Notes under the pieces: generated by a model
The model's database searches: none
What the model was told of the DNA's origin: nothing
Seen by the model: the letters and a program-made list of their open reading frames with translations, nothing else
Program-made: the position numbers and the translations under genes
Shown: piece after piece, positions 8,170-64,000 of the stretch
How positions within the stretch are numbered: position 1 is the stretch's first letter
How the letters are laid out: each line of letters starts with the position of its first letter
From: JAWCQZ01 sp038869515 [NCBI: Halobacteria archaeon]
Lineage (GTDB): Archaea > Halobacteriota > Syntropharchaeia > JACQPP01
Reading direction: 5' to 3'
Assembly: GCA_038869515.1 (NCBI GenBank)
Contig: JAWCQZ010000008.1
Span: 21,916-85,915 of the forward strand
DNA length: 64,000 nucleotides

Positions 8170-8186
8170 ACTAACCAATGGTTAGT
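8170..8186 (+). promoter_or_regulatory. HSR1-type heat-shock operator 1
   Basis: ACTAACC-AAT-GGTTAGT is a perfect 7-bp inverted repeat. It contains CTAAC-N5-GTTAG, the palindrome described for the heat-shock repressor HSR1 of Archaeoglobus fulgidus. It abuts the TATA box, where a bound repressor would block TBP/TFB or polymerase. Its centre is 24 bp from that of operator 2. Confidence 0.85.
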
Positions 8187-8192
8187 GCCAAT

Positions 8193-8211
8193 CACTAACC
8201 ATAGGTTAGTG
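8193..8211 (+). promoter_or_regulatory. HSR1-type heat-shock operator 2
   Basis: CACTAACC-ATA-GGTTAGTG is a perfect 8-bp inverted repeat, again with CTAAC-N5-GTTAG. It overlaps the predicted start of transcription. Only the central spacer differs from operator 1, which argues for a shared protein ligand rather than an RNA hairpin. No HSR1-like regulator gene is in the window. Confidence 0.85.
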
Positions 8212-24684: not shown

Positions 24685-24800
24685 CTACGATGGCCCATCG
24701 GGGGACGGGGTTAAAAGATTTCTCTTGCTGCCGGTCCTGTCGACACCCGTTGCCGACGGGACGGGAGGGTTCCCGAGTGGACCGGCAACACGAACCGAAG

Positions 24801-24810
24801 ATTTCTTATG
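24801..24810 (+). promoter_or_regulatory. TATA box of deoxyhypusine synthase
   Basis: ATTTCTTATG lies 21-30 bases before the ATG at 24831. Transcription would begin at or beside the start codon. The divergent aIF5A box is at 24711-24720, so the two genes have separate cores about 90 bp apart. Confidence 0.65.
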
Positions 24811-24830
24811 ATGCTCTTGGATTGGCAGCG

Positions 24831-29937: not shown

Positions 29938-30969
29938 TCAGTGGAAAATCTGCGCCACCGCTTCCGCCAGCCGCCGGTTGTCGGGCCGCGTCCGAATTCC
30001 CAATCGGAGGTAGCGGGGCAGGCCGAAGGAGGCGCAGTCCCGGACCAGGAGGCCGCGCTTCAGGAGGTCGCGGGCGGCCCGCGACGCCCCGCCGGGGGCC
30101 TCGGCGGTGAGGAAAGGGGCCGCGCTCGGCTGCGGGCGGAGGGGAGTAGCGGCGAGTTCCTCGGTGAGCCACGCCCGCTCCCGGGCCACGAGCCGCCTCG
30201 ACCTTTCGAGGAACGGCCCCGCCCCCCGGAAGCAGGCCCGCGCCGCCTCCTCGGCGGGGACCGAGAGGGACCAAGGGCTCCGCAGCGCCTCCAGGGCATC
30301 CGCCACCGGGGGCGAGGCGGCGGCGAAGCCCGCCCGGAGGCCGGGGAGGCCGAACGCCTTGCTGAGGCTCCGGAGGACCAGGAGCCCTTCGAAGTCCGCC
30401 GCGTCGGGGGCGACCGACTGGGCGGGGTCCGACAACTCGACGAAGGACTCATCTACCACCAGCACCGCGCCGCGCCGGTCGCACTCCTCAGCCAGGGAGA
30501 GGACTTCGTCCCGGAGAAGCAGATCCCCGGTGGGGTTGTTGGGGTTGCAGGCGAAGACCACGCGGGAGGAGTCGGGGCCGGAGCCCTCCTTCGCCTCAGC
30601 CCCCGCGAGCATCGCCCGGAAGCGATACTCCTCGTAGGTGGGGCTGCGGACCACCACCCGGTCGCCGGGCTCGAGAAACGCGCGGACGGCGAGCTCGATG
30701 AGTTCGGTGGAGCCGTTGCCGGGGACGACCAGTTCGGGGGACGAGCCGCAGAAGCGGGCCGCGGCCTCCCGGAACTCCGCATACCGGTCGTCGGGGTAGT
30801 GGGCCAACTCCTTCGCGCACTCCCGCAGGGCGCGGGCCACCGGGAAGGAGAGGGGGTTGGTGCAGGCGGAGAAGTCGAGGACCTCGCGGCCGGCGGCTTC
30901 AGAGGCGGCGCGGACGTTGCCGCCGTGGACCGGCCTTCTGGGGAACTGGGCACCCTGAACTCGGCTCAT
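29938..30969 (-). CDS. CobD/HisC-family PLP aminotransferase or decarboxylase
   Basis: 343 residues from the ATG at 30969. [31 protein letters not shown] is the opening typical of threonine-phosphate decarboxylase (CobD), where HisC differs. [37 protein letters not shown] and [17 protein letters not shown] (Schiff-base Lys) are fold-type I motifs common to CobD and HisC. CobD supplies aminopropanol phosphate for the cobalamin nucleotide loop; HisC is the alternative. No cob or his genes are adjacent. It begins just downstream of the small ribbon-helix-helix gene and is followed by carB. Confidence 0.85.
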
Positions 30970-31006
30970 CCTGCCCGGGTTCCGGTGCGGCACAAAAAGA
31001 CGCCGC

Positions 31007-36228: not shown

Positions 36229-36549
36229 TCAGGCCTGCCTGGGCGCGGCCCTTTCCCCGGCGCGCGGGCCCTGCGAGAAGCCGCACTCGTGGCAGAACTT
36301 GGGGACCTCCTTCTCGAAGAGGGCGCCGCAGTGGAAGCACCGGGGGCGCAGGTCCCGGGTCCGCACCAGCCGCTCGCTGCAGTTTTCGCAGTAGCGCCCC
36401 CGGCCCGGGAGGCGGCAGGCGGCGCACCACCGCAGGTGGCGCTTCCGCCGCTCGACCGGCCAGTAGAGGAGGAGGATGAAAGCCACGAAGGCGCCGAGGA
36501 ACGCGAGCCAGAGGAGGCCCGCGAGACCGAGGGCCTGGAGGACGCCCAT
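36229..36549 (-). CDS. Membrane-anchored double zinc-ribbon protein
   Basis: 106 residues from the ATG at 36549. One N-terminal helix (LGLAGLLWLAFLGAFVAFILLLYW) is followed by basic residues (RRKRHLR), so the rest faces the cytoplasm. Two zinc ribbons follow: WCAACRL...YCENC and RCFHCGAL...FCHECGF, eight Cys in four CxxC pairs. Such small membrane zinc-ribbon proteins are common in archaea and have no assigned function. It is convergent with the thioesterase (2 bp apart) and divergent from the next small gene (21 bp between starts). Confidence 0.82.
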   Translation of the reverse strand: MGVLQALGLAGLLWLAFLGAFVAFILLLYWPVERRKRHLRWCAACRLPGRGRYCENCSERLVRTRDLRPRCFHCGALFEKEVPKFCHECGFSQGPRAGERAAPRQA

Positions 36550-36570
36550 CTTCCCCGGGAGGGTCGCGGG

Positions 36571-36873
36571 ATGAAGGTTTTCCCCTACGACGTCCGCCGG
36601 GGACCGATGGAGAAGCCGGCACCCCGGAAGGTCCGCCCCGCCCGGGTCGCCGCGGGAGTCCCGGTCCCGCAGGAGGTCCGGGCGGAGCTGGAGTCCCTCG
36701 CGCGGAGGCACGGGCGCCCCCTCGAGACCGTGGAGGCCCGATTCCGCCACATGGAGGGCTACGACCTCATCCGGGAGCGGTTCCAGGGGCGGCCGGAGAG
36801 GGAGCGGTGGGACTACATCCTGCAGATTCTGGAGGAGCGGCTCAAGGACGAGGCCCCGGGGGCGCAAAGTTGA
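36571..36873 (+). CDS. Hypothetical protein, 100 residues
   Basis: Not recognised. It starts with MKVFPYDVRRGPMEKPAP, then a helical domain: PVPQEVRAELESLARRHGRPLETVEARFRHMEGYDLIRERFQGRPERERWDYILQ and a final charged helix. The central helix-turn-helix-like pattern is suggestive but below what I would call. It has no membrane segment or Cys. It lies 25 bp before the peroxiredoxin on the same strand and may be co-transcribed with it. Confidence 0.62.
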   Translation: MKVFPYDVRRGPMEKPAPRKVRPARVAAGVPVPQEVRAELESLARRHGRPLETVEARFRHMEGYDLIRERFQGRPERERWDYILQILEERLKDEAPGAQS

Positions 36874-36898
36874 AAAAGAGCCGCGCGCACGGCACTCC

Positions 36899-37345
36899 AT
36901 GCTGAAAGCGGGCGACAAGGCGCCGGAGCTTGCGGGCCTCGACCAAAACGGCCGGAAGATTTCGCTGGCAGGCAAGAAGGTCGTCCTCTACTTCTACCCC
37001 AAGGACGACACGCCGGGGTGCACCGTCGAGGCGTGCAACTTCCGGGACTCCAGCGACGAAATCCGCAAGCGGGGCTGGGAGGTCGTGGGGGTCTCGACCG
37101 ACCCCGTGCTCTCCCACAAGAAGTTCGAGCAGAAATACCGCCTCAACTTCCCGCTCCTGGCAGACCCCGAGAAGGAACTGACATCGGAGTTCGGAGTCCT
37201 CGCCCCCCTGGGCTACGCCCAGCGCGCCACCTTCCTCGTCGGCGCCAACGGCCTCGTCCTGCACGTCTGGCCGAAGGTGAGCCCGAAGAGCCACGCCGCC
37301 GAGGTCATCGCAAAAATCGAGGAGCTCGACCGGACGGGAACGTAG
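36899..37345 (+). CDS. bcp: Peroxiredoxin, BCP/PrxQ type
   Basis: 148 residues. KVVLYFYPKDDTPGCTVEACNFRDSSDEI contains the peroxidatic Cys41 (P-x-x-x-T-x-x-C context) and resolving Cys46 five residues later, the PrxQ atypical two-Cys arrangement. VVGVSTDPVLSHKKFEQKYRLNFPLLADP and the later Arg in AQRATFLV complete the active site. It reduces H2O2 and organic peroxides using thioredoxin-like donors in the cytoplasm. Its stop is directly followed by the stop of the convergent CrtI-like gene. Confidence 0.96.
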   Translation: MLKAGDKAPELAGLDQNGRKISLAGKKVVLYFYPKDDTPGCTVEACNFRDSSDEIRKRGWEVVGVSTDPVLSHKKFEQKYRLNFPLLADPEKELTSEFGVLAPLGYAQRATFLVGANGLVLHVWPKVSPKSHAAEVIAKIEELDRTGT

Positions 37346-40078: not shown

Positions 40079-40204
40079 CGCGGGAATGCGTGCTGCCGTC
40101 AAAAGACCCTCGGTCCGCCCTCCCCAGCCCTGAATCCGGGGTCTCGCGATCCCCGGTTCCGGGCCCGCGTCAAGCCTAATAGGGGTCGAGGCCCATGCCC
40201 TCCC

Positions 40205-40591
40205 ATGTCCAGAACCGTCCTCACGGCCCAGGATGTGATGGTCAAGGAGGTCTACACCATCGGCCCCAACCAGAAGGTCGCCCTCGCCCGGCTCCAGATG
40301 CTCCGCCATGGCGTCGGCGCCCTGCCGGTCCTCGACTCCGACGGCAGCCTGCTCGGCATCGTGACCCTCCGGGACATCGACCTCGCCGGGCACGACATCG
40401 GCGACATGCGCATCGAGGAACTGATGAGCCGCAACCTCGTCACCTGCTCCCCCGAGACCCCCCTCCGGCGCATCGCCGACGACATGGTGAAGAGCGGCAT
40501 CCAGCGCATCCCGGTGGTCAGCGGGCGCGGAAAACTGGTGGGGCTGGTGACCCAGACCACCCTCATCAAGGGGGCGCGGAACTACCTGTGA
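40205..40591 (+). CDS. Two-CBS-domain protein
   Basis: 128 residues, almost entirely a CBS pair (Bateman module): TAQDVMVKEVYTIGPNQKVALARLQMLRHGVGALPVLDSDGSLLGIVTLRDID and IEELMSRNLVTCSPETPLRRIADDMVKSGIQRIPVVSGRGKLVGLVTQTTL. Such modules bind adenosyl ligands (AMP, ATP, SAM) and regulate partners. There is no attached effector, so it must act in trans. The aminotransferase GTG overlaps its stop (GTGA), a hint that the enzyme or its pathway is the target. CCTAATAGG (about 40174-40182) may be the promoter. Confidence 0.93.
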   Translation: MSRTVLTAQDVMVKEVYTIGPNQKVALARLQMLRHGVGALPVLDSDGSLLGIVTLRDIDLAGHDIGDMRIEELMSRNLVTCSPETPLRRIADDMVKSGIQRIPVVSGRGKLVGLVTQTTLIKGARNYL

Positions 40592-41775
40592 GCCTCCGCA
40601 AGGGCTCCCTGAAGGTGAAATCGCTCCACCTCGGGAACCGGGTGGCCCGGAGGGTGCGGGAGGTCCCCCCGAGCGGCATCCGGAGGTTCTTCGAGATGGT
40701 GATCGGCATGGAGGACGTCCTCAGCCTCGCGGTGGGCGAGCCCGACTTCGCCACCCCGTGGCGCGTCCGGGAGGCGGCCATCTACTCCCTCGAGCGCGGC
40801 GACACCTCCTACACCAGCAACTGGGGGTTGCTGGAGCTGCGCGAGGCCATCGCCCGCCACATGGAGGAGGGGTACGGCGCGACCTACGACCCGAAGAAGG
40901 AGGTCCTCGTCACCACCGGGGTCTCGGAGGGGCTCGACCTGACCCTGCGGGCGGTGGTGGAGCCCGGCGAGGAGATCCTCTACCCGGAGCCCGCCTACGT
41001 CTCCTACGGCCCCAACACGGTCTTCGCCGGGGGCGTCCCCCGGAGCGTGGTGGCGGAGGAGCACGAGGGGTTCGTCCCCCGGGCGGAGGCGCTCGACGCG
41101 GCGGCCGCGAAGGGGCCGGTGAAGGCCCTCCTGCTGAACTACCCCAACAACCCGACCGGGGCGGCCCTCGGCCGGAGGGAGATGGCCCGCATCGCGGAGG
41201 TGGCGGAGGACCGCGACCTGCTCATCATCTCCGACGAGATTTACCGGGACCTGACCTACGACGGCAAGCCCTTGAGCATGGCCTCCTTCGCCCCCGAGCG
41301 CACCATCGTCCTCGGGGGCTTCTCGAAGGGGCAGGCGATGACCGGCTTCCGCATCGGCTACGCCTGCGGGCCCGCCGAACTGATCGCGGGGCTGGCGAAA
41401 ATCCACCAGTACACCATGCTCTGCGCCCCCATCACCGGCCAGTACGCCGCCATCGAGGCCCTCGCGGCGGAGGGGGAGACGCGGGAGATGGTGCGGGAGT
41501 ACGACCGGAGGCGGCGGTTCCTCATGGGCGCATTCAGGGAGATGGACCTCCCCTGCGCGGAGCCGAAGGGGGCGTTCTACGCCTTCCCGATGGTGCCCGG
41601 CGAGAGTTCCGAGAAGTTCGCCGAGGGGCTCCTGAACCAGCAGAAGGTCGCGGTGGTGCCCGGGTCGGCCTTCGGGAAGAGCGGGGAGGGGCACATCCGC
41701 ATCTCCTACGCGGTGGAGATGGGGACGCTGAGGGAAGCGGTGGAGCGGATTGGGAAGTACGTCGAGGGGAAGTAA
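40588..41775 (+). CDS. Class I/II (aspartate-aminotransferase-like) aminotransferase
   Basis: 395 residues from an overlapping GTG. DVLSLAVGEPDFATPWRVREAA, YTSNWGLLELREAIARHM, VTTGVSEGLDLTLRAVVEPG, LLNYPNNPTGAALGRREM, LLIISDEIYRDLTYDG, and IVLGGFSKGQAMTGFRIGY (PLP Lys) are fold-type I hallmarks; GEGHIRISYA holds the carboxylate-binding Arg. It fits archaeal aspartate or aromatic/branched-chain aminotransferases; specificity is unclear. It is translationally coupled to the CBS protein. The next 100 bp (41776-41877) hold nothing identifiable. Confidence 0.93.
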   Translation: MSLRKGSLKVKSLHLGNRVARRVREVPPSGIRRFFEMVIGMEDVLSLAVGEPDFATPWRVREAAIYSLERGDTSYTSNWGLLELREAIARHMEEGYGATYDPKKEVLVTTGVSEGLDLTLRAVVEPGEEILYPEPAYVSYGPNTVFAGGVPRSVVAEEHEGFVPRAEALDAAAAKGPVKALLLNYPNNPTGAALGRREMARIAEVAEDRDLLIISDEIYRDLTYDGKPLSMASFAPERTIVLGGFSKGQAMTGFRIGYACGPAELIAGLAKIHQYTMLCAPITGQYAAIEALAAEGETREMVREYDRRRRFLMGAFREMDLPCAEPKGAFYAFPMVPGESSEKFAEGLLNQQKVAVVPGSAFGKSGEGHIRISYAVEMGTLREAVERIGKYVEGK

Positions 41776-43939: not shown

Positions 43940-45184
43940 CTACCCCGACCCAGTCTCGTCCTTCAGCAACTCCCGAGCGATGGTGAGCTCCTGGATTTCG
44001 TCGGTCCCGCCCCCTAGGGCGAGGAGCCGGACGTCCCGGTAGAGCTTCTCGACGGGGTATTCCGAGAGGAAGCCGTAGCCGCCGAAGATCTGGATCGCCT
44101 CCCGGCAGACGTCCTCGGCAGCCTTGCCGCAGTAGAGCTTGGCGGCGCAGGCGTCCTGCATGTTCCGGACGTTGTTCTTCATCATCCAGATTTGCTTCAG
44201 CATGAGGTTCTTCACGTTCTCCCGGTGCATGTACATGAAGGCCAGTTTCTTCTGGACCATCTGGTACTCCGCGATGGGGCGGCCGAACTGGACCCGCTCC
44301 TTCGAGTACTTCACGCACTCGTCGATGCACCGCTCGATGACCCCGAGGGCCATGGCGGGGGCGCCGGAGCGCTCGCCCTCGAGGATGGAGATGGCCTGGA
44401 TCCGGCTCGGGTCCTTCTCCTTCCCCCCGAGCAGGTGGTCCTTGGTCACGGTGACCTCGTTCATGTAGATGGCGCCGGTGGGGCTGGTCCGCATCCCCAT
44501 CTTCTTGAAGGGCTTGCTGGTCTCCAATCCGTCCATCCCGCGCTCCAGGATGAAGCCGTGGACCTTCCGCTGGGCAGGGTCGCTGCCCGGGTGGTCGATG
44601 CGGGCGTAAACGACGAAGGTGTCGGCGTAGGGGGCGTTTGTCACGAGCGTCTTCTGGCCCGTGAGGACGTATTTGTCCCCCTGGACCTTCGCCACCGACT
44701 TCAGGCCGAAGGCGTTGCTCCCGCTGTCGGGCTCGGTGAGCCCCCAGGCGCCGATTTTGTCGAGGAGGAGAACCGGAAGGGCGTATTTCTCTTTCTGAAC
44801 CATGGTGCCCTTCGCCATAATGGTCCGGCCGCAGAGGCCGAGGGAGGCGCCGAGGGAGAGGGCGAGGCCGGGGTCGATGCGGGAGATTTCCACGAAAAGG
44901 AGGAGAAAGAGGGTCGGGTCCTGGGCGGTGCCCCCGCTGAAGAGGTCCGCCTCGGGGGCCCCCTCCATCGTGTCGCTCCCCTGCTCCTTCAGTTTCTTGC
45001 GGCGCGACTCCCACCCCGACTTGATCATCGAGGCGATGCCGAAGGTCTTCCAGATTTTGCGCATCGCCTCGTAGGTGAGGCGGTCGTCCTCCTCCATCTT
45101 CGGGACCATGGGCTGGATCTCCTTCGCGAGGTAGGAGCGGAACATCTGGCGCGCCGCAAGTTGCTCCTTGGTGAAGTCGAACAC
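43940..45184 (-). CDS. Acyl-CoA dehydrogenase
   Basis: 414 residues. AWGLTEPDSGSNAFGLKSVAKV, YVLTGQKTLVTNAPYADTFVVYARID and FKKMGMRTSPTGAIYMNEVTV are FAD/acyl-CoA motifs; QIFGGYGFLSEYPVEKLYRDVRLLALGGGTDEIQ is the C-terminal signature. At the position of the usual catalytic Glu (Y-E-G-T) there is Gly (G-G-G-T). A Glu in ILEGERSGAPAMALG lies where isovaleryl- and long-chain enzymes keep their base, so that branch is likely. TATA box CTTTTAAAAC at 45208-45217 (in reverse) fits a leaderless mRNA. It is divergent from an SCP2 protein. No electron-transfer flavoprotein genes are nearby. Confidence 0.94.
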   Translation of the reverse strand: MFDFTKEQLAARQMFRSYLAKEIQPMVPKMEEDDRLTYEAMRKIWKTFGIASMIKSGWESRRKKLKEQGSDTMEGAPEADLFSGGTAQDPTLFLLLFVEISRIDPGLALSLGASLGLCGRTIMAKGTMVQKEKYALPVLLLDKIGAWGLTEPDSGSNAFGLKSVAKVQGDKYVLTGQKTLVTNAPYADTFVVYARIDHPGSDPAQRKVHGFILERGMDGLETSKPFKKMGMRTSPTGAIYMNEVTVTKDHLLGGKEKDPSRIQAISILEGERSGAPAMALGVIERCIDECVKYSKERVQFGRPIAEYQMVQKKLAFMYMHRENVKNLMLKQIWMMKNNVRNMQDACAAKLYCGKAAEDVCREAIQIFGGYGFLSEYPVEKLYRDVRLLALGGGTDEIQELTIARELLKDETGSG

Positions 45185-45207
45185 GATGGGGGTGTGGGGG
45201 CACCGCC

Positions 45208-45217
45208 CTTTTAAAAC
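45208..45217 (-). promoter_or_regulatory. TATA box of the acyl-CoA dehydrogenase gene
   Basis: GTTTTAAAAG on the minus strand, 24-33 bases before the ATG at 45184. It is the same sequence type as the WD40 promoter. Confidence 0.7.
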
Positions 45218-45290
45218 TTCTCCGGGGGCGCGGAAAGCGCTTCAAACTTGTTTCGGCCGAGAAACCTGCTTTCGGGGCAGAAACATGGAA

Positions 45291-45300
45291 ATTTTCTTAT
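45291..45300 (+). promoter_or_regulatory. TATA box of the SCP2 gene
   Basis: ATTTTCTTAT lies 24-33 bases before the ATG at 45324. It also makes an upstream ATG at 45285 unlikely as the start, since that would precede the transcript. Confidence 0.65.
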
Positions 45301-45323
45301 GCCCGGGGAGGGCAGGACAGGCC

Positions 45324-45737
45324 ATGGGCGCCCTCGACGACGTCCGGGCCAAGTTCCAGGCGGGGAGCGCCCGCCCGGAGGACCTCGGGCTCCTCTTCAA
45401 GGCGATAGAGGAGCTGGCCTCCCGGGACCCCGACGTCCAGGCCGAACTCAACGGCGTGAGGGACGTCACCGTCAACTTCGTGGTGGAGAAGACCGACCTC
45501 AAGACCTACCTGAGAATCGCCAACCACCGGCTCCAGTTCGGCGTCGGGACCGCCCCCAACCCCGACGTCACCCTCTCGGTGAGCGCCGAAGTGGCGGCCT
45601 ACCTGGCGGCGGCCAACATGGACAAGGTCCGGGAGGCGGTCTTCGCCGGAGGGTTCAACGTTGTGAGCGGGGACATCAACAAGTCCATGGCCCTCCTGCC
45701 CATCTTTGAAATGGTCGTGGAGAAACTGCAGGCCTGA
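45324..45737 (+). CDS. SCP2 sterol-carrier-like lipid-binding protein
   Basis: 137 residues, one SCP2 domain: an N-terminal helix pair, then DVTVNFVVEKTDLKTYLRIANHRLQFGVGTAPNPDVTLSVSAEVAAYLAA and VFAGGFNVVSGDINKSMALLPIFEMVVEKL. SCP2 domains hold fatty acyl chains or other lipids in a hydrophobic tunnel. Its divergent placement with the acyl-CoA dehydrogenase suggests a shared lipid or acyl-CoA process. The start is chosen by the TATA spacing. Nothing identifiable lies between its end and 45840. Confidence 0.88.
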   Translation: MGALDDVRAKFQAGSARPEDLGLLFKAIEELASRDPDVQAELNGVRDVTVNFVVEKTDLKTYLRIANHRLQFGVGTAPNPDVTLSVSAEVAAYLAAANMDKVREAVFAGGFNVVSGDINKSMALLPIFEMVVEKLQA

Positions 45738-57158: not shown

Positions 57159-58331
57159 TTACTCTTCCGGGTCCGCGACCGCCACAGCACGCCGGGGGTC
57201 GAGGCCGGACCACCGGACGCGGTAGCCCATCGCCTCGAGGAGCGCCGGAGAGGCGACGACCCCCGCGGCGCTCGCCTGGCGGCAGAGGTCGGCGACGCTC
57301 CCCTTCCGCGGCAGGCGCGCCCGCAGCGCCTCCGCGAAGGAGCGCTTCACCAGCAGGTCGCCCGCGCGGAGGTACTCCGGGGCGCGCGCCTGCAGGGAGC
57401 GGGCGAGGGCTTCGGGCTCGACGCCGCTCCCGGCGGCCAAGGATGCGACCGGGATGACGTCCTCCCCGAGGACCACCCTCGCGGCGACGTCGGAGGGGCG
57501 GACGGGCGGAGGCCCGGGAGCGAGCAGCAGGGGGCGGAGGGAGTCGTCGAGCGCGAGCAGGGCGGGGCGGGGCGCCCCTCGGACCGGCCCCCTCCGGCCG
57601 GAGCGGCCGCTCCGGGGCATGACGATTTCGGAGGACCACGACCAGCGCTCCAGGGACGCGACCTGGTCGAAGAGGCGGGCGAGCCCGTCGGTCCTCTCGG
57701 GGCCCCGGCCCCTCCCGGGGGAGACCTGGACCCGGCCCTGGTCGAACGCGGCCTCCAGGCCGAGGGCACGGGCGCGGGACGCCACCGCCTCGAGGTCGCC
57801 ATCGACCGCGGCCCCCCGGGCCCACTGAAGGAGGGTGTGGATCAGTTCGCGGTTGAACTCCCGGAGCAGGTCGTCGGGCGGGGGCGGGTCGAACCCCCTC
57901 AGCACGGTCTCGGAGTCGAGGTCCGCCCAGAGGGAGGCGTCGAGCGCCTCGGCGGAGGTGCTGAAATCGGAAGCGACGGCGGAGAGCAGCGCCGCGCGCT
58001 TCTCCGCGTCCGCCACCGGCCCCCCCGCGGCGCCGAAGAGGGCCCGGCGAGCCGCCGCGGGCTCCACGGCGCTCTCCACTTCGAACCGGGAGCGGCGCTC
58101 GAGGAGGACGACGAGCGACTTCCGGAACCGCAGCGCGGGGGCGGTCGTTCCGGGGGGCTCCCCGGCGTCGAGGGCGGCCTCCAGTTCCGCCCGCCTCTTG
58201 CCGACCGACTCCCGGAAAACGGAGATGAGCCCCTGAGCCGCTTCGCGGTTGGCGTCGCTCAGCAGCGCGAAACCGGGTTGGACCCGGTCGCCCTGGAATC
58301 GCAGGACCAGGAGTTCCTTCGGGAGTGTCAC
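57159..58331 (-). CDS. bax1: Bax1 (DUF790) nuclease partner of XPB
   Basis: 390 residues. LPKELLVLRFQGDRVQPGFA is the family opening. FEVESAVEPAAARRALFGAAG, LWADLDSETVLRGFDPPPPDDLLREFNRELIHTLLQWA and the C-terminal domain LLVKRSFAEALRARLPRKGS with a Tyr/Trp-rich end (MGYRVRWSGLDP) fit DUF790. Bax1 binds archaeal XPB and is a structure-specific endonuclease that cuts bubble or 3'-flap substrates, replacing XPG in a nucleotide-excision pathway. Its ATG overlaps the xpb stop (4 bp), as is usual for this pair. Confidence 0.93.
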   Translation of the reverse strand: MTLPKELLVLRFQGDRVQPGFALLSDANREAAQGLISVFRESVGKRRAELEAALDAGEPPGTTAPALRFRKSLVVLLERRSRFEVESAVEPAAARRALFGAAGGPVADAEKRAALLSAVASDFSTSAEALDASLWADLDSETVLRGFDPPPPDDLLREFNRELIHTLLQWARGAAVDGDLEAVASRARALGLEAAFDQGRVQVSPGRGRGPERTDGLARLFDQVASLERWSWSSEIVMPRSGRSGRRGPVRGAPRPALLALDDSLRPLLLAPGPPPVRPSDVAARVVLGEDVIPVASLAAGSGVEPEALARSLQARAPEYLRAGDLLVKRSFAEALRARLPRKGSVADLCRQASAAGVVASPALLEAMGYRVRWSGLDPRRAVAVADPEE

Positions 58332-59746
58332 GCCGCCGCCCGCCTCCCGCGCCCCCGGGCCAGTTTCACGCTCACCGGCGTGTGGCGCCGCCGCATCGTG
58401 CCGACCTCGCTGGTCTTCTTCGAAACGATTTCGTAGAGCAGCGCGCGCTTCCCCTCCCGCTTCCGGAGGATGCGCCCCAGCCGCTGCCGGTAGGCGCGGG
58501 TCGAGCCTGTTCCGCTGAGGATGACGCCGACCGAGGCCTCGGGGACGTCAATCCCCTCGTCGAGGACGCGGGAGGTGACGAGCGCCGAGTAGGTCCCGGC
58601 GCGGAAGCCCTCGAGGTTCCGGGCCCGCTCCTCCTTCGGGGTCTTGTGGGTCACGGCCGGGACGAGGAACTCCCGGGAGATGCGGTAGACCAGGTCGTTG
58701 AACTCGGTGAAGATGAGGGTCCGCTCGCCGGGGTGAGCTTGGAGAACTTCGCGCAGGGCAGCCATCTTCGAGGCCGAGTTGAGGGCGATGGTCCGCGCCC
58801 GGTGGCGGGCCAGGAGCGCCGTCCGGGCCCGCGGGTCCCGGCCGCTCCTCATGATGAGGCGCTGGAAGTCCCGGGGGCCCCGAAACTTGATGTTGGCCGC
58901 CCGGACGAAGGAGCGGAAAATCAGGTGGTTCCGGCGGTATTCCGCCTCCTCCCCCGGGGTCAACTGGGTGGTGACGACCCTCACGTCATATTCCGCCAGG
59001 TGGGTCCCGGCGAGGTTAGCGATGGGGACCTCCATCACCTTCGGGCCGACCAGTTTCTCGAGCCGCGCGTGGGCGCCGTCTTCCCGCTCCAGGGTTGCGG
59101 TGAGGCCGAGGCGGCAGGGGGCCGCCGCCATCTCCGCGATGCGGCCGTAGGCGGGGGCGGCGAGGTGGTGGACCTCGTCGAACAGGAGGAATGGGAAGCG
59201 GTTGCCGAGCGTTTCGGCGTTGATCGCCGCGCTGTCGTAGGTGGCGACGGTGACGGCTCGAATGTCCTTCCTCTCTCCGGTGAAGGCCCCGGCCTCCACG
59301 CCGAGGACCTTCCGGATTTCGTCCCGCCACTGCTCGACGAGGTCGAGGGTCGGGACGCAGACGAGGACCGGCACGCGCAGGTCGGCCACGGCCTGGAGCC
59401 CCACGAAGGTCTTGCCCGAGCCGGTGGGGAGGACGACGATGCCCCGGCGGCCAGCCCTGGCCCACGACTCCAAGGCCTTCGACTGGTAGTCCCGGAGGGG
59501 CAGGGAGACCGGGGAGATGGAGCCGGGGACATCCTCCCAGACCGCGTCGTCAAAGTCCGCCTCCTCGCAGCGCAGGGCGGCGACGACCCGGGAGTAGGCG
59601 AAGGCGGGGACGCGGTAGGCCCGGAGGGCGGGGTCCCAGTCGGAGCCGGGGGGGCGGAAGGTCCCGCGGACCAGCAGGTGGCCCCGGTCGTAAGAGAGGG
59701 CCGTCTTCTGCACGGCTCGCAGAGGAGCCGCGGCGCTCCTATCCAT
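58328..59746 (-). CDS. xpb: XPB-type DNA helicase
   Basis: 472 residues, SF2 helicase. A damage-recognition domain (about 1-80) precedes LRDYQSKALESWARAGRRGIVVLPTGSGKTFVGLQA (Q motif and Walker A), LLFDEVHHLAA (DEVHH box), LGLTATLEREDGAHARLEKLVGP (motif III plus the XPB RED motif), a thumb region, and VTSRVLDEGIDVPEASVGVILSGTGSTRAYRQRLGRILR (motifs V-VI). It remodels DNA at lesions together with Bax1. The start at 59746 is about 27 bases from the TATA-like AAAACCTAATC (59774-59784, minus strand), so leaderless; earlier in-frame codons would precede the transcript. Confidence 0.96.
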   Translation of the reverse strand: MDRSAAAPLRAVQKTALSYDRGHLLVRGTFRPPGSDWDPALRAYRVPAFAYSRVVAALRCEEADFDDAVWEDVPGSISPVSLPLRDYQSKALESWARAGRRGIVVLPTGSGKTFVGLQAVADLRVPVLVCVPTLDLVEQWRDEIRKVLGVEAGAFTGERKDIRAVTVATYDSAAINAETLGNRFPFLLFDEVHHLAAPAYGRIAEMAAAPCRLGLTATLEREDGAHARLEKLVGPKVMEVPIANLAGTHLAEYDVRVVTTQLTPGEEAEYRRNHLIFRSFVRAANIKFRGPRDFQRLIMRSGRDPRARTALLARHRARTIALNSASKMAALREVLQAHPGERTLIFTEFNDLVYRISREFLVPAVTHKTPKEERARNLEGFRAGTYSALVTSRVLDEGIDVPEASVGVILSGTGSTRAYRQRLGRILRKREGKRALLYEIVSKKTSEVGTMRRRHTPVSVKLARGRGRRAAA

Positions 59747-59860
59747 CCCGCTCGCGTGTTCAACCCGCGAGGTGATTAGGTTTTCCGTTGTCGAAATCGC
59801 CATCCCGGGAGCCATCGAGGGGGTTGCGGGGCGGTGGGTGATGGGGGTGGGCCGAGAGGG

Positions 59861-59992
59861 GGGTGAAAGTGACAGAACTCGCGCGAGCGCAGCGAGCGCG
59901 AGTTCTGCGACGCCCCGGCCCGAAGGCCGGGGCGTCCGCCGGCGGGCCTTTTAAGAATTTTCACGCAGTGAAAATTCTTGTGACTTTCGCCC
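59861..59992. repeat. Compound palindromic element, left copy
   Basis: Ends GGGTGAAAGTGACA (59861-59874) and TGTGACTTTCGCCC (59979-59992) are inverted, 12 of 14 matching. Between them are three perfect hairpins: AGAACTCGCGC/GCGCGAGTTCT (59874-59884 with 59896-59906), GACGCCCCGGCC-CGAA-GGCCGGGGCGTC (59909-59936), and AAGAATTTTCAC-GCA-GTGAAAATTCTT (59953-59979), plus the palindrome CCGCCGGCGG (59936-59945). There is no coding capacity of its own. An inverted relative lies at 63878 onwards. The size, terminal repeats and hairpins resemble a miniature mobile or REP-like element. Confidence 0.75.
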
Positions 59993-60000
59993 CCCGCGGC

Positions 60001-60126
60001 CTGAAGCCGGCGGCCGAGTGGATGCGCGACTACGAGGCCCGCTGGAACTCGGCCCTCGACCGGCTGGACGACTACCTTCAAGAACTGCAGGCCACGGAGG
60101 GGCGCCATGGCGGCGGGAAAGAGTAG
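60001..60126 (+). pseudogene. 3' remnant of an ArsR-family regulator
   Basis: Forty-one codons end an open frame that enters from the palindromic element: LKPAAEWMRDYEARWNSALDRLDDYLQELQ and a charged end. This matches the C-terminal helix (x-W-x-x-x-Y-x-x-x-W-x-x-x-L-D-x-L-x-x-x-L) of ArsR regulators that, in many bacteria, stand directly before AHSA1/SRPBCC genes. The DNA-binding helix-turn-helix part is missing; in its place lies the element at 59861-59992. The frame can be read upstream to an ATG at 59863, but that part only translates the palindromes. Its end overlaps the next gene by 20 bp, the tight link expected of the original pair. Confidence 0.65.
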
Positions 60127-61066
60127 TCAGGCCGACCGGGAAATCGTCATCACCCGCATCCTTCACGCGCCCCGCGAGTTGGTGTGGGAGGCGTGGACCG
60201 ACCCCAAGCACACCGACCGCTGGATGGGCCCGCGCGGGTTCGCGACCCAAACCAAAGAGATGAGCGCCAAACCCGGCGGCGCGTGGCGCTACACCATGCG
60301 CCATACCGAGCACGGGGAGTTCCAGAACAAAATCACCTACCTCGAAGTCGTGAAGCCCGAGCGCCTCGTCTACGACCATGGCGCGGACGACGGCGGCGAG
60401 CCCCACTTCCGCGTGACGGTGACGTTCAAGGACCTCGGGGGCAAGACGGAGCTCCAGATGCGCTCGGTCTTCCCCACGGCCGCCGCGCGCGACAAGGTGG
60501 TGAAGGAGTACAACGCCATCGAGGGCGGGAACCAGACCGTCGATCGGCTGGAGGAGCACCTCGCGAGGAGCGCGATGGAGGAGTTCGCCATCACCCGCAC
60601 CCTCGACGCGTCCCGCGACCTCGTCTGGAAGGCCTTCACCGAGTCCGAGCGCATGGCGAAGTGGTGGGGGCCAAAGGGGTTCGTCGTCCGGGTCAGCAAG
60701 ATGGACCTCCGCCCCGGCGGGACCTACCACTTCTGCCTCAGCGGGCCCAACAACACGGAGATGTGGGGCAGGTTCGTCTTCCGGGAAATCGTGAAGCTGG
60801 AGCGCCTCGTCTACATCAGTTCCTTCTCGGACGAGAAGGGCGGCGTCACCCGGCCCCCGTTCAGCGAGCCCTGGCCGCCGGAGATACTCTCGACCTTCAC
60901 TTTCGAGGAGCGCGGCGGCAAGACAGCGGTCACCATCCGGTCGGTGCCGTTCCGGGCGACGGAGGAGGAGCGCAAGACCTTCGACGCCGGGCGCAAATCC
61001 ATGACGCAGGGGTGGACCGGGACGTTCGAGAAACTTGCCGGATACCTCGCCGAGGCCCGGTCATGA
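60107..61066 (+). CDS. Tandem AHSA1/SRPBCC-domain protein
   Basis: 319 residues made of two START-like AHSA1 domains. The first (about 10-150) starts DREIVITRILHAPRELVWEAWTDPKHTDRWMGPRGF; the second (about 157-316) starts EEFAITRTLDASRDLVWKAFTESERMAKWWGPKGF and ends MTQGWTGTFEKLAGYLAEA. Each has the domain's hydrophobic cavity pattern, used to bind small ligands. In bacteria single AHSA1 proteins usually occupy such loci; here two are fused. It overlaps the ArsR remnant upstream and the VOC gene downstream (ATGA). Codons ending in A or T are more frequent than in the core genes. Confidence 0.9.
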   Translation: MAAGKSSQADREIVITRILHAPRELVWEAWTDPKHTDRWMGPRGFATQTKEMSAKPGGAWRYTMRHTEHGEFQNKITYLEVVKPERLVYDHGADDGGEPHFRVTVTFKDLGGKTELQMRSVFPTAAARDKVVKEYNAIEGGNQTVDRLEEHLARSAMEEFAITRTLDASRDLVWKAFTESERMAKWWGPKGFVVRVSKMDLRPGGTYHFCLSGPNNTEMWGRFVFREIVKLERLVYISSFSDEKGGVTRPPFSEPWPPEILSTFTFEERGGKTAVTIRSVPFRATEEERKTFDAGRKSMTQGWTGTFEKLAGYLAEARS

Positions 61067-61974
61067 TTGGGCAAAAAATCACCCCGCATCTTTGGTTCGA
61101 CAAGGAAGCCAAGGAGGCCGCTGGGTTCTACGCCTCGGCCTTCCCGAACTCGAAAATCACGAGCGCGACGACCCTCCACGGCACGCCGTCCGGCCCGGTG
61201 GACATCGTGTCGTTCGAGTTGTCCGGACAGCCATTCCAGGCCATCAGCGCCGGGCCTCTGTTCAAGTTCAATCCGTCCGTGTCGTTCATCGTGAATTTCG
61301 ACCCGTCGCGGGACAAGAGCGCGCGGGAGAGCATCGACGCGCTGTGGGAGAAACTCTCGCAGGGCGGCACGACGCTCATGCCGCTCCAGAAATACCCGTT
61401 CAGCGAGCGCTACGGCTGGGTGCAGGACCGATACGGGCTTTCCTGGCAACTCATCCTGTCCAACCCCGAGGGCGAGGAGCGGCCCTTCATCGTCCCGTCG
61501 CTGATGTTCGTGGGTGCTGTCTGCGGAAAAGCCGAGGAGGCGGCCAACCTCTACCAGTCTGTGTTCCGGAACTCGAAGCAGGGAACCGTCGTCCGTTACG
61601 CCAAAGGCATGGGGCCGGACAAGGAGGGGACGGTCATGTTTTCCGACTTCATGCTCGAGGGCCAGTGGTTTGCGGCCATGGACAGCGCCCGGGAGCACAC
61701 ATTCGCCTTCAACGAGGCGGTTTCCTTCATGGTCCATTGCGACACGCAGAAGGAGATTGACCACTATTGGGAGAGACTTTCCGCAGTGCCCGGGGCGGAG
61801 CAGTGCGGCTGGCTCAAGGACAAATACGGGCTCTCGTGGCAGGTGGTCCCGGCCGTTCTGGACGAGATGATGCGGAACGGCACCCCGAAGCAAATCGCGC
61901 GCGTGACCGAAGCGTTGCTCAAAATGAAAAAATTCGATGTTGGAGCGCTCAAAGGGGCATACGAAGGGAAATAA
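61063..61974 (+). CDS. Double PhnB-like VOC-superfamily protein
   Basis: 303 residues in two PhnB/3-demethylubiquinone-methyltransferase-like (DUF899-type VOC) domains: KITPHLWFDKEAKEAAGFYASAFPNSKI to about 140, and PSLMFVGAVCGKAEEAANLYQSVFRNSKQ to about 270. Each has the F-D/G-x-x-A-x-E-A-x-x-F/L-Y and Y-G-L-S-W-Q motifs, and both ends keep W...D-x-Y-G-L-S-W-Q. Typical family members have one domain of about 150 residues. Function is unknown (possibly resistance or glyoxalase-like). The start overlaps the AHSA1 stop. It has relatively AT-rich stretches for this genome, e.g. near 61920-61985. Confidence 0.9.
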   Translation: MIGQKITPHLWFDKEAKEAAGFYASAFPNSKITSATTLHGTPSGPVDIVSFELSGQPFQAISAGPLFKFNPSVSFIVNFDPSRDKSARESIDALWEKLSQGGTTLMPLQKYPFSERYGWVQDRYGLSWQLILSNPEGEERPFIVPSLMFVGAVCGKAEEAANLYQSVFRNSKQGTVVRYAKGMGPDKEGTVMFSDFMLEGQWFAAMDSAREHTFAFNEAVSFMVHCDTQKEIDHYWERLSAVPGAEQCGWLKDKYGLSWQVVPAVLDEMMRNGTPKQIARVTEALLKMKKFDVGALKGAYEGK

Positions 61975-61986
61975 ACCGGTCGGCGA

Positions 61987-62625
61987 ATGCCGATGAAAAA
62001 AGCACCCAAAAGCGCGGATGCCCACATGGAAGAGGCTCCTAAAGAAGTGCGCGCCAAGGTCTCCGTGTTCGTGGGCGCGAGCCTCGACGGCTTCATTGCG
62101 CGCAAGAACGGCGACCTCGACTGGCTGGAGGGGCCCGGCGGGAGCCCGGGCGAGGACTACGGCTACCGGGCGTTCGTGTCCCGAATCGACGCCCTGGTCA
62201 TGGGCCGCGGCACGTTTGAGAAAGTCCTCACCTTCAAGGAGTGGCCCTACGGGAAGAAGCCGGTGTTTGTGCTGACGCATCGTCCGCTGGTGATTCCGCC
62301 GAAACTGACCGGAACCGTCGAGGCGATGTCGGGAACCCCGGCCGAAGTGGTCGCGCGGCTCGCCAAGCGCGGGCTTCACCGCCTCTACGTGGACGGCGGC
62401 AAGACCATCCAGGAATTCATCGCGGCCGGCCTCGTGGACGAGTTGATTGCGAGCCGCCTGCCGGTCCTTATCGGAGAGGGGATTCCGCTGTTCGGCCCGG
62501 TGCCGGCGGACATCCGGCTCAAGCACGTGGAGACCCGGACGTTCGCGGGCGGCGTGGTACAGAGTGTATACAAGATTGAAAAGCCACGCGGGGGTGGCCA
62601 CCGGACCCGCGCCCCCAGGAAGTGA
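61987..62625 (+). CDS. RibD/dihydrofolate-reductase-like protein
   Basis: 212 residues with an N-terminal charged arm (1-22). The DHFR/RibD C-terminal fold follows: KVSVFVGASLDGFIARKNGDLDWLEG, FVSRIDALVMGRGTFEKVLTF, KPVFVLTHRPL, then LHRLYVDGGKTIQEFIAAGLVDELIASRLPVLIGEGIPLFGPVP. Motifs for NADPH binding (G-x-x-x-F, D-G-G) are present. Small stand-alone proteins of this type commonly accompany AHSA1, VOC and ArsR genes in bacteria; their substrate is unknown. The gene has a 12 bp gap from the VOC gene. The 150 bp after its end hold nothing I can identify. Confidence 0.9.
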   Translation: MPMKKAPKSADAHMEEAPKEVRAKVSVFVGASLDGFIARKNGDLDWLEGPGGSPGEDYGYRAFVSRIDALVMGRGTFEKVLTFKEWPYGKKPVFVLTHRPLVIPPKLTGTVEAMSGTPAEVVARLAKRGLHRLYVDGGKTIQEFIAAGLVDELIASRLPVLIGEGIPLFGPVPADIRLKHVETRTFAGGVVQSVYKIEKPRGGGHRTRAPRK

Positions 62626-62777
62626 GAGCCGCCCGGGGCCATGCCCCTGCTGTCGCCGCCGCTGCCGACCGTTAAGGCGGATTCCTCGGGATGCCAGACC
62701 GCGTGGCGTGAGCCCGCTCGGAACCGTTTCCCGGGAAGGACTCCTCGACGGCGACCATGATTGGAGAATCCGTGCAA

Positions 62778-63665
62778 TCAGGGAGTTGATCTGAGGAACG
62801 CCACCATCTCCTTCGCAATCCCCTCCGGCACATCCTCCTGCAAAAAGTGGCCCGCCTCCGGGAAGACCACCTTTTTCGCTGACGGCAACCTCTCCTGGAA
62901 CCTCTCCGCCACGGAGACGGGAAAGACGAGGTCCCTCCCTCCCCAGAGAATCAGCGCAGGCCGGTCGGCGATTTTCCCGAGCGAGTCGTCCACCTTGACG
63001 ATGACCGGCCACGCCTCCTCTCCCGACGCCATGGGAATCAGCCGCGGGAACGCCAGGACCCCGGCCCGCGATTCCGGCGTCGGGAACGGGGCCCGGTAGG
63101 CATCCATGACCTCCTTCACCCGTTGCTTGCTGGCGATGCCCCCGGGCAGGAGGACCTCCACGAAGAAGTTCTGGTTCAGGACCATTCCCTCCCCCTTCGG
63201 TTCCCGGAGCATCGCGAGGAAGGGCGGAATCTTCGCCTTCGCGTGGGGCTTGAACGCCCAGGTGTTCAGAATGACCAGCCGCTTCACCCGGTCCAAGTGG
63301 CCGGCCGCCCACCCGAGGCCGATGGGGCCGCCCCAGTCGTGGACGACGACCGTGACGTCGCGGAGGTCGAGGCGGTCGGCGAGCGCGGTCAGGTCTGCGA
63401 TGTGGCCGTGGATGGTGTAGTCGGTCCAGCGGGGCCCGCGCTTGTCGCTCCGGCCGAAACCGATGTAGTCGGGCGCGATGGCCCGGAACCCCGCGCCGAC
63501 CACGGAGGGGAGGATGTTGCGGTAGAGGAAGGACCAGGTCGGGTTGCCGTGGAGGAAGAGGATGGGCTCGCCCTTGCCCTCGTCCACGTAGTGCATCTGG
63601 AGGCCTGCTCCTATCTCCGCAAAGTGCGGCACGAACGGGAAGCGGCCACCAAATGTCCAGTCCAT
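62778..63665 (-). CDS. Haloalkane-dehalogenase-like alpha/beta hydrolase
   Basis: 295 residues from the ATG at 63665. EPILFLHGNPTWSFLYRNILP carries the His-Gly oxyanion region and the halide-binding Asn position. VTVVVHDWGGPIGLGWAAGH has Asp as nucleophile with the adjacent Trp that binds halide. A cap domain (about 140-215) precedes ILWGGRDLVFP (acid) and EAGHFLQEDVPEGIAKEMVAFL (catalytic His). Retention of Asp nucleophile, Asn and Trp favours true dehalogenase chemistry over epoxide or ester hydrolysis, though natural substrates of such enzymes are seldom known. It is convergent with the DHFR-like gene and lies inside the palindrome-flanked region. Confidence 0.88.
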   Translation of the reverse strand: MDWTFGGRFPFVPHFAEIGAGLQMHYVDEGKGEPILFLHGNPTWSFLYRNILPSVVGAGFRAIAPDYIGFGRSDKRGPRWTDYTIHGHIADLTALADRLDLRDVTVVVHDWGGPIGLGWAAGHLDRVKRLVILNTWAFKPHAKAKIPPFLAMLREPKGEGMVLNQNFFVEVLLPGGIASKQRVKEVMDAYRAPFPTPESRAGVLAFPRLIPMASGEEAWPVIVKVDDSLGKIADRPALILWGGRDLVFPVSVAERFQERLPSAKKVVFPEAGHFLQEDVPEGIAKEMVAFLRSTP

Positions 63666-63691
63666 CGCTCCCGGGTTGGCCCCTCCGGCTT

Positions 63692-63907
63692 TCAACTTGC
63701 CTGGGGTCGCGGATAAAACCGGCCCCTCACGACCTCTACGGGGTAGAGCAGGAACGCGAGCCCGGCGGCCATGATGAGCCCCGAGGCGGGGAGTCCGAGA
63801 GCGAGGAGAAGCGCCGCCGACACCCCGCCGGCGAACCGGCCCAGGTTCAGGAAGAACTCCCGGGCCACCACGGTCACGGGAATTTGCGCTGCGCGCAAAT
63901 TCCCCAA
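63692..63907 (-). CDS. Small membrane protein starting within the right palindrome
   Basis: 71 residues with one long or two short hydrophobic segments (VSAALLLALGLPASGLIMAAGLAFLLYPVEVV). The first ten residues (MGNLRAAQIP) are encoded by the hairpin at 63878-63904, so the frame may be a truncated gene whose original 5' end was replaced, like the ArsR remnant at the other border. The homologous part would then start near VTVVAREFFLNLGRFAGG. No family is recognised. It lies 26 bp upstream of the dehalogenase-like gene and could share its transcript. Confidence 0.5.
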   Translation of the reverse strand: MGNLRAAQIPVTVVAREFFLNLGRFAGGVSAALLLALGLPASGLIMAAGLAFLLYPVEVVRGRFYPRPQAS

Positions 63908-64000
63908 GGTCCCGCCGGCGGACGCCCCGGGCTTCAGACCGGGGAGGAGCCGGCGGGCAGCATAACTCGGTCGGCGCTCGGAGCCCTTGCGCCGAAGCGC
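63878..64000. repeat. Compound palindromic element, right copy (inverted, runs to window end)
   Basis: GGGAATTTGCGC-TGC-GCGCAAATTCCC (63878-63904) is a 12-bp hairpin with the same TGC loop as its counterpart in the left copy read in reverse. Next is AAGGTCCCGCCGG onward (63906-63930), matching the reverse complement of 59927-59950 except for one inserted T. CCCGCCGGC/GCCGGCGGG (63911-63919 with 63949-63957) then encloses CCCCGG/CCGGGG. After 63961 the AACTCGG...GCTCGG stretch weakly resembles the third hairpin. The element is probably cut by the window edge. Confidence 0.65.

What the first reader, a model, noticed from the sequence alone, without database searches (positions are those of the whole stretch)
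59861..64000. Bacterial-type gene cassette flanked by inverted copies of a compound palindromic element
Two related 120-130 bp structures, in opposite orientation, bracket 60.0-63.9 kb. They share an AT-core hairpin with the same TGC loop and a 24-base GC block that differs by one indel. The left copy also has imperfect 14-bp terminal inverted repeats. Between them lie an ArsR-like remnant, double AHSA1, double VOC, DHFR-like and haloalkane-dehalogenase-like genes, a set common in bacteria and unlike the archaeal core genes around it. Both border genes appear to lose their 5' ends at the element. This looks like a composite unit that moved or was assembled by a non-autonomous element, with no transposase visible.
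Basis: partly seen in the sequence, partly recalled or inferred. Interest (0 to 1): 0.82.

Follow-up and report, generated by a model that had tools for sequence, protein, structure and literature searches.

The report
Two IS605-like hairpin elements flanking genes
Two diverged, transposase-less hairpin elements that resemble IS200/IS605 transposon ends sit on either side of accessory genes in a GC-rich archaeon; they look like separate old insertions, not one mobile cassette.

Summary
The paired structures are real: a 72-nt inverted match (81%), with hairpins far more stable than shuffles allow. They are best read as two diverged copies of a transposase-free element related to IS200/IS605 (TnpB/IscB) transposons, of the PATE kind. 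The right copy has a hairpin like those beside TnpB genes. Three hairpin models rank it first, first and second in the window, the last two close to GC background. A relative, G668 (up to 79% protein identity), carries several related repeats whose one end follows TTAC or ATAC. The left copy is tied to the family mainly through the right one.

The composite-cassette reading is not supported. The copies are inverted, so no left-end/right-end pair spans the genes on one strand. They differ by 19%. Related gene clusters occur in other archaea, the full set in one, with no clear element beside them, so the genes are not specifically bacterial. Codon usage differs among the genes.

The ArsR remnant on the left is real and begins exactly where the AT hairpin ends. 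The right "lost 5' end" cannot be judged, because the window ends 43 nt after the right double stem. No genome of the window is held, so ends, target duplication and empty site were not testable.

The parts
59858..59995 (+). Left copy with the imperfect inverted repeat (59858-59873 / 59980-59995) and GTGAC direct repeats at 59869-59873 and 59980-59984; the right-hand GTGAC is already ArsR coding sequence
   Evidence: Sequence; fold z -8.36; ArsR homology from 59980
59874..59906 (+). Left copy, hairpin 1: AGAACTCGCGC, 11-nt loop, GCGCGAGTTCT
   Evidence: Sequence and fold
59909..59936 (-). Left copy, GC hairpin, 12 perfect pairs. In TnpB orientation it keeps GGACG-CCCCGG of the IS605-type hairpin but lacks AGGA and the 3' outer arm
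   Evidence: model R1 21.4 bits, tied with a coding stretch at 22105; model R2 13.6 bits, rank 16; not in the R3 list to E 0.2; RF02656 sot0042 below threshold, E 0.033, lowest E of 27 mostly chance matches
59953..59979 (+). Left copy, AT hairpin, loop GCA/TGC, 12 perfect pairs
63878..63904 (-). Right copy, AT hairpin, loop GCA/TGC, 12 perfect pairs; 4 of 12 pairs differ from the left copy on both sides
63911..63957 (+). Right copy, double-stem hairpin: outer stem CCCGCCGGC/GCCGGCGGG, internal loop GGACG/AGGA, inner stem CCCCGG/CCGGGG; resembles IS200/IS605 ends
   Evidence: Model R1 36.9 bits, first; R2 23.9 bits, first; R3 20.1 bits, second; RF00062 HgcC below threshold, E 0.007, lowest of 8 matches; like layout near TnpB in L175, L203, L201, L202 and in G668 copies
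63971..63995 (-). Right copy, probable third hairpin TCGGCGC, 11-nt loop, GCGCCGA; same shape as left hairpin 1. Formed when folded alone, but paired otherwise in longer folds
   Evidence: other pairings
59980..60126 (+). C-terminal remnant of an ArsR-family regulator; N-terminal part missing
   Evidence: tblastn to the ArsR of L163, residues 68-102
60107..61066 (+). Protein with two AHSA1 (SRPBCC) domains
   Evidence: PF08327, 2 stretches
61063..61974 (+). Protein with two VOC (PhnB-like) domains
   Evidence: PF06983, 2 stretches
61987..62625 (+). RibD_C / dihydrofolate-reductase-like protein
   Evidence: PF01872
62778..63695 (-). Alpha/beta hydrolase, closest to haloalkane dehalogenase models, below their cut-offs
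   Evidence: PF00561; NF002938 231 bits, cut-off 241
63692..63907 (-). Small hydrophobic reading frame, no known family found; frame open through the right element to the window end
58328..59815 (-). XPB-type helicase, next to a Bax1-type nuclease (57159-58331); left neighbour of the left copy

Best explanation
The left and right structures are two diverged copies of a short, transposase-free element of IS200/IS605 descent (PATE-like: palindromic ends without the transposase core). Such elements would be mobilised in trans, as single strands, by a Y1 transposase that recognises the hairpins. The two copies most likely reached their places separately, beside or within genes of a common accessory cluster (ArsR, double AHSA1, double VOC, DHFR-like, dehalogenase-like) that the archaeal lineage acquired on its own. 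The left copy went into the ArsR gene, and the ArsR N-terminus was lost by deletion or rearrangement. Shown: kinship of the two copies, their hairpins, likeness of the right hairpin to TnpB-flanking hairpins, related repeats in a relative, related clusters elsewhere without a clear element, ArsR homology starting at the hairpin. Inferred: descent from an IS605 transposon, mobilisation in trans, independence of the insertions, how the ArsR N-terminus was lost.
For: A 36-nt search with the right GC hairpin gave 24 plasmid and 59 phage records. Of 14 places inspected (12 of the 15 plasmid rows with no annotated gene under the match, H60, and 1 phage record) 4 lie within 63 nt of a TnpB or IscB gene (L172, L174, L175, L181), all with both hairpin arms. 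Model R1 (7 such hairpins) puts the right copy first, 36.9 bits, next 21.4; R2 first, 23.9, next 22.7. Rfam below threshold: right = HgcC over the whole model, E 0.007, and HgcC also matches the 3' end of TnpB in L174 at 30.9 bits; left = sot0042, E 0.033, an omega-RNA family of IS200/IS605 (PMC12558985, passages). Relative G668: 3 long copies and 3 partial ones in 954,194 bases; the 4 copies that show the double-stem end are preceded by TTAC (3) or ATAC (1); TnpB locus L202 has the same GAGAAT..ATGAATC motif upstream of its gene. Clusters: full set in L164, parts in L163, L165, L169.
Against: R1 is partly circular (4 of 7 hairpins were found through the right copy). R2 is less so but not free of it: L202 and L203 came from scans that asked for a GC hairpin followed by AGGA, L201 from R1, and the L174 locus from the right-copy search. 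Model R3, from four 3' hairpins placed by position after TnpB, ranks the right copy second (20.1 bits) behind a stretch inside the dehalogenase gene (27.3 bits). The left copy is not distinguished by R2 or R3. Many uninspected hits lie inside annotated genes (19 of the 20 phage rows listed are Mycobacterium phages). L173 has a 5-bp hairpin and no TnpB. The left copy has an imperfect inverted repeat and a GTGAC direct repeat, which PATEs should not have. Left and right lack the TTAC flank of G668. Close copies were not found in 389 Thermoplasmatota (4 short chance-like hits), 42 other archaea (1 short hit) or plasmids. No TnpB was found in the window or G668 stretches.
Confidence: 0.55

Rival explanations
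1. Composite unit: a MITE of a cut-and-paste (DDE) transposon with terminal inverted repeats, two inverted copies of which moved the gene cluster together, as with TIME-COMPs.
For: Left copy has an imperfect inverted repeat; GTGAC is repeated on both sides, and the inner one is ArsR coding sequence, as a 5-bp target duplication would be. VOC and DHFR-like genes are the two strongest codon outliers, z -2.96 and -2.78. MITE-bounded composites are known (PMC13367494, start of abstract seen in the search listing).
Against: No counterpart of the left inverted repeat was seen at the right copy; the right hairpin resembles IS605-type ends; AHSA1 codon usage is typical of the window (z 0.11); related clusters occur in archaea without a clear element; copies 19% diverged.
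Confidence: 0.15
2. Recombination remnant: the two inverted copies served as homologous sites for an inversion or deletion that produced the truncated ArsR gene and the present gene order.
For: Inverted copies with a gene truncated exactly at the left one.
Against: No ArsR N-terminus was found in the window, and only 43 nt lie beyond the right double stem; 81% identity over 72 nt is a poor substrate for recombination.
Confidence: 0.13
3. Decayed TnpB guide-RNA (omega-RNA) or other structured RNA relics, kept as RNAs rather than as mobile ends.
For: Sub-threshold Rfam matches to HgcC and sot0042; 4 pairs covary between the AT hairpins.
Against: No TnpB found; matches far below gathering scores; two copies only.
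Confidence: 0.07
4. REP or other host palindromes that resemble IS ends by chance in a GC-rich genome.
For: Left GC hairpin ends in CGTC; coding stretches score near or above the right copy in R2 and R3.
Against: REPs are 20-40 bp, and CGTC ones have an unpaired tag and AT first pairs (PMC3733652, passages), unlike this; the compound layout is shared by both copies; the terminator scan lists no site at either element.
Confidence: 0.1

Closest known systems
PATEs (palindrome-associated transposable elements) of Haloquadratum, IS605-derived (PMC3119063, passages read)
   Same: Short, no transposase, palindromes like those of IS605-type transposons; archaeal.
   Different: Left copy has an imperfect inverted repeat, a GTGAC direct repeat and an extra AT palindrome; boundaries could not be shown.
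IS200/IS605 (IS1341-type) transposon ends beside TnpB
   Same: Right copy: outer stem, GGA/AGGA internal loop, inner CCCC..GGGG hairpin with a TTCAG-type loop.
   Different: No TnpB found (TnpA not sought); no TGTCA or TTCAC terminus; no TTAC flank.
HgcC (RF00062) and sot0042 (RF02656) RNAs
   Same: Right copy aligns to the whole HgcC model; left GC hairpin aligns to the 3' end of sot0042.
   Different: 20.2 bits against a gathering score of 50; 15.8 against 88.
SMR-A small mobile repeats of Haloquadratum
   Same: About 110 bp with inverted ends, found in IS605-type palindromes (PMC3119063, passages).
   Different: No SMR sequence was compared; the right copy shows no inverted ends in the window.
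TIME-COMP composites (MITE-bounded; PMC13367494, listing only)
   Same: Two non-autonomous copies bounding accessory genes.
   Different: No comparison with Tn3-type ends was made; no proof of joint movement.

Membership tests
PATE | Near-terminal palindromes similar to IS605-type transposon ends | tested here: inconclusive
   Right copy: first in R1 and R2, second in R3, 4 of 14 inspected hairpin hits beside TnpB/IscB; left copy only through its homology to the right. Likely but not proven
PATE | Too short to code for a transposase | tested here: met
   About 140 bp left; no TnpB/IscB match in the window
PATE | No terminal inverted repeats | tested here: inconclusive
   Left copy has an imperfect inverted repeat, possibly its target site; far end of the right copy not fixed
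PATE | No target duplication | tested here: inconclusive
   GTGAC on both sides of the left copy, the inner one in ArsR sequence; right copy not testable
PATE | Repeated in the genome, insertion polymorphism between strains | not testable with these tools
   No genome held for the window; related repeats in G668
IS200/IS605 transposon | Y1 TnpA and/or TnpB gene between the ends | tested here: not met
   TnpB/IscB not found; TnpA not searched for
IS200/IS605 transposon | Left end placed 3' of a short target such as TTAC | tested here: inconclusive
   No TTAC beside the window copies; TTAC or ATAC beside 4 of 4 G668 copies that show that end; targets differ among elements (recalled)
MITE / composite transposon | Terminal inverted repeats in both copies with target duplications | tested here: inconclusive
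   Left: imperfect repeat and GTGAC on both sides; right: not seen in the sequence available
MITE / composite transposon | Unit present or absent as a whole in relatives | not testable with these tools
   XPB loci found have at most 55% identity; XPB not found in the G668 stretches beyond one 26% match
REP (CGTC or GTAG) | 20-40 bp palindrome with unpaired CGTC or GTAG tag | tested here: not met
   CGTC in the left hairpin is paired with GACG; the whole is a compound of hairpins

The most novel reading that the evidence does not exclude
Two inverted IS605-type, transposase-free elements bound and have moved an archaeal gene cluster as one unit: a composite of single-strand (peel-and-paste) elements, which would need a way of pairing ends on opposite strands that is not known for this family.
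Probability: 0.05. Interest if true: 0.75.

Novelty: new member of a known kind. Interest (0 to 1): 0.3.

Why it matters
It adds PATE-like elements in a GC-rich archaeal lineage whose nearest genome seen (G668) lies in the phylum of a Methanocellaceae genome, with a related repeat family there. It also shows how a 'composite cassette' impression can arise from two separate insertions around a widespread kind of accessory cluster.

Tried and rejected
Exact patterns of the hairpins in viral contigs: 0 matches in 4 scans. Left element as DNA in 389 Thermoplasmatota: 4 genomes with short matches that on inspection I read as chance GC matches. Right element in 42 archaea: 1 genome with a 22-nt match. 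Lineage: XPB, PAN (22), DHS (24-26) and GatD (30, 31) pointed to different groups, none above 64%; G668, found late by the element itself, is the nearest relative seen (PAN 79% over 301 aa, CPSase 76% over 646 aa, GatD 61%). An empty-site idea for the right copy (joining the two sides of the element in frame) was dropped: no homologue spanned it, and a probable third hairpin suggests that the copy runs further. A 5-bp direct repeat GACCG seen by eye around the right GC hairpin was dropped for the same reason. An in-frame reading through the elements (as with Rickettsia palindromic elements, recalled) was considered; both frames are open through the element, but this is weak evidence. VOC tree of 9 rows: no starred group holds the window. 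Hits L225 and L226 were not followed beyond. In one search two further G668 matches (L270, L284) fall on the flank of the query, outside the element, and were not counted as copies; a weak one (L294) was also left out.
Full report
The two structures exist. The repeat finder lists one long inverted pair in 59000-64000: arms 59913-59984 and 63873-63944, 72 nt, 81% complementary; the next is 30 nt at 77%. BLAST gives E about 4e-15. Folded as DNA, left (59859-59998) and right (63873-63960) have z-scores of -8.36 and -6.11, with 0 of 200 shuffles as stable for each. Of eight hairpins in the window with at least 11 pairs and loops of 3-9, three are in the elements; ten Markov sequences gave 1 to 6 each. 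The AT hairpins share the 3-nt loop; of their 12 pairs 8 are the same and 4 are changed on both sides, none broken. With two sequences the shuffle control reaches this in 27 of 500 cases, so it is suggestive only.

Anatomy. Left: inverted flank 59858-59873 / 59980-59995 with GTGAC as a direct repeat inside; hairpin 1 at 59874-59906 with an 11-nt loop; GC hairpin 59909-59936; AT hairpin 59953-59979. ArsR homology starts at 59980, directly after the AT hairpin, so the inner GTGAC is host coding sequence and the element ends there; GTGAC could then be a 5-bp target duplication. Right, inverted: AT hairpin 63878-63904; a double stem 63911-63957 (outer CCCGCCGGC/GCCGGCGGG, internal loop GGACG/AGGA, inner CCCCGG/CCGGGG); and a probable third hairpin 63971-63995 with an 11-nt loop like left hairpin 1. 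Folded alone it forms; longer folds pair that stretch otherwise. The far boundary of the right copy, its target duplication and the fate of the 5' end of the neighbouring frame (63692-63907) cannot be judged. That frame matches no family above threshold and nothing in the plasmid collection.

What the element is. A 36-nt query around the right GC hairpin found 24 plasmid and 59 phage records, at E 0.1 or weaker. I looked at 14 places: 12 of the 15 plasmid rows with no annotated gene under the match, H60, and the best phage record. Four lie beside a TnpB or IscB gene: L172 (27 nt beyond the 3' end of iscB), L174 (63 nt before TnpB), L175 (58 nt before TnpB), L181 (16 nt after TnpB); all four have both hairpin arms. 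L173 has a short hairpin inside a gene and no TnpB; the other nine have no TnpB match. Not inspected were 11 plasmid rows, some inside genes, and 58 phage records; the 19 other phage rows listed are Mycobacterium phages, inside annotated genes. TnpB genes were sought in archaea: 24 of 77 genomes have them. Hairpins of the form GGAAnCCCC...GGGGAGGA stand after TnpB in L202 and, in varied form, in L188 and L198, before it in L203, and in the 5' part of the open frame in L201, whose start codon is not fixed.

Three covariance models test this. R1 (7 hairpins, 4 of them found through the right copy) scores the right copy 36.9 bits, E 4.6e-8; the left copy and a coding stretch at 22105 tie at 21.4. 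R2 (L174 3' end, L202, L203, L201) scores it 23.9 bits, first, with a coding stretch at 22.7 next and the left copy at 13.6, rank 16. R2 is not free of the right copy: the L174 locus was found with it, L202 and L203 by scans for a GC hairpin followed by AGGA, L201 by R1. R3 (3' hairpins of L174, L202, L198 and L188, taken by their place after TnpB) scores the right copy 20.1 bits, second to a stretch in the dehalogenase gene at 27.3; the left copy is not in its list to E 0.2. So the likeness is good, but in a 70% GC window it is not beyond coding background. Rfam, below gathering score: the right copy matches HgcC over the full model at E 0.007, the lowest of 8, and HgcC also matches the 3' end of TnpB in L174 at 30.9 bits. 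The left GC hairpin matches sot0042 at E 0.033, the lowest of 27 mostly chance matches; sot0042 is an omega-RNA family of IS200/IS605 according to PMC12558985 (passages). A search for papers holding both HgcC and TnpB found none.

Relatives. No genome is held for the window. XPB relatives in genome contigs reach at most 55% among the 80 loci kept. The left copy was searched in 389 Thermoplasmatota (4 genomes with short chance-like hits), the right copy in 42 other archaea (1 short hit) and in 392 genomes of the phylum of G025, a Methanocellaceae genome (3 genomes with hits at E 1e-4). One of these, G668, is the nearest relative seen: PAN 79%, CPSase 76%, GatD 61%, with GatD next to the homologue of 29938-30993 as in the window. 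In 954,194 bases of it there are three long related copies (L229; L228, 97% over 129 nt, cut by its contig end; L269, 82% over 95 nt plus an 85% piece of 48 nt) and three partial ones (L307, L233, L313). L229 and L269 show a single GC hairpin at one end and a double stem at the other, with conserved GAACG/ATGAA internal loops; the outer stem sequence differs among L229/L228, L269 and L307 while its pairing is kept. The double-stem end is preceded by TTAC in L229, L228 and L307 and by ATAC in L269. TTAC is the recalled target of IS608. The TnpB locus L202 carries the same GAGAAT..ATGAATC motif upstream of its gene, and in one orientation the L313 hairpin ends in GTAGTTCAC, as does the TnpB 3' hairpin of L196. 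G668 therefore seems to hold a family of IS605-type elements without a transposase; no TnpB was found in its stretches with the queries used. The right window copy matches its double stem at 82-84% over 48 nt. PATEs were defined in Haloquadratum as IS605-derived elements with near-terminal palindromes, no inverted repeats, no target duplication (PMC3119063, passages). The window copies fit by hairpin and size; the left copy's inverted repeat and GTGAC repeat do not.

The genes between. AHSA1 twice, VOC twice, RibD_C and an alpha/beta hydrolase are confirmed. The ArsR remnant matches residues 68-102 of an archaeal ArsR that stands in front of AHSA1 in L163. Related clusters are found in archaea: G106 L164 holds the full set (ArsR, AHSA1s, DHFR, VOC, a second ArsR); Haladaptatus plasmid L169 has ArsR, SRPBCC genes, SDR and DHFR; G072 L163 has ArsR and AHSA1s; Methanoperedens G026 L165 has DHFR, VOC and AHSA1. 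In eight such loci the two copies gave one weak 44-nt match, in L163 at 16547, away from the cluster, and none in the other seven. Of 80 archaeal genomes searched 9 have an AHSA1 match at E 1e-10. Among the VOC proteins compared the identities are 56% (Methanoperedens), 48-51% (haloarchaea), 48% (bacteria), 45% (G106), and the 9-row tree mixes archaea and bacteria. Codon usage: AHSA1 z 0.11, VOC -2.96, DHFR -2.78, dehalogenase -1.55; three window genes outside the cassette are nearly as odd, z -2.4 to -2.5. So VOC and DHFR may be recent arrivals, but the set does not behave as one import.

Mechanism. IS200/IS605 transposases act on one strand, needing a left end 5' and a right end 3' (recalled). 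With the two copies inverted, no such pair spans 60.0-63.9 kb. Independent insertions in trans, the left one into ArsR with later loss of the ArsR N-terminus, explain the facts with least. A composite unit, recombination between the copies, RNA relics and host palindromes are rivals with lower weight; none can be excluded without the rest of the genome and sister strains.

Noticed in passing
L224 and L227 (G668), C-terminal ends of the reading frames: In the relative G668 two copies of the element lie at the 3' ends of hydrophobic reading frames in the same frame, adding nearly the same tail (KPAENAPGFKPGDESAGDF..LPWLVAGRSRRRRRAQHTKT) to two different proteins; the L224 frame runs off its contig. 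A mobile element may here supply protein C-termini.
   Followed up: partly
window 8170-8210: The longest hairpin of the scan of the window (17 of 18 pairs, AT-rich), 114 nt from the tRNA-Gly gene at 7984-8056.
   Followed up: no
L249 1064-1102 and L299 11187-11217 (G668): Perfect hairpins of 18 and 14 pairs with T-run arms and a TGC loop, reminiscent of the AT hairpins of the window (only GCA/TGC loops were scanned for).
   Followed up: no
window 36229-36975, 40195-41775, 45168-45737: Three genes outside the finding with codon usage nearly as odd as VOC and DHFR (z -2.4 to -2.5).
   Followed up: no
window 24690-25844: Deoxyhypusine synthase closer (49-58%, 21 of 23 genomes) to a 23-genome phylum (G020, G270-G291) than to the other archaea searched or to the G668 stretches (41%).
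   Followed up: partly
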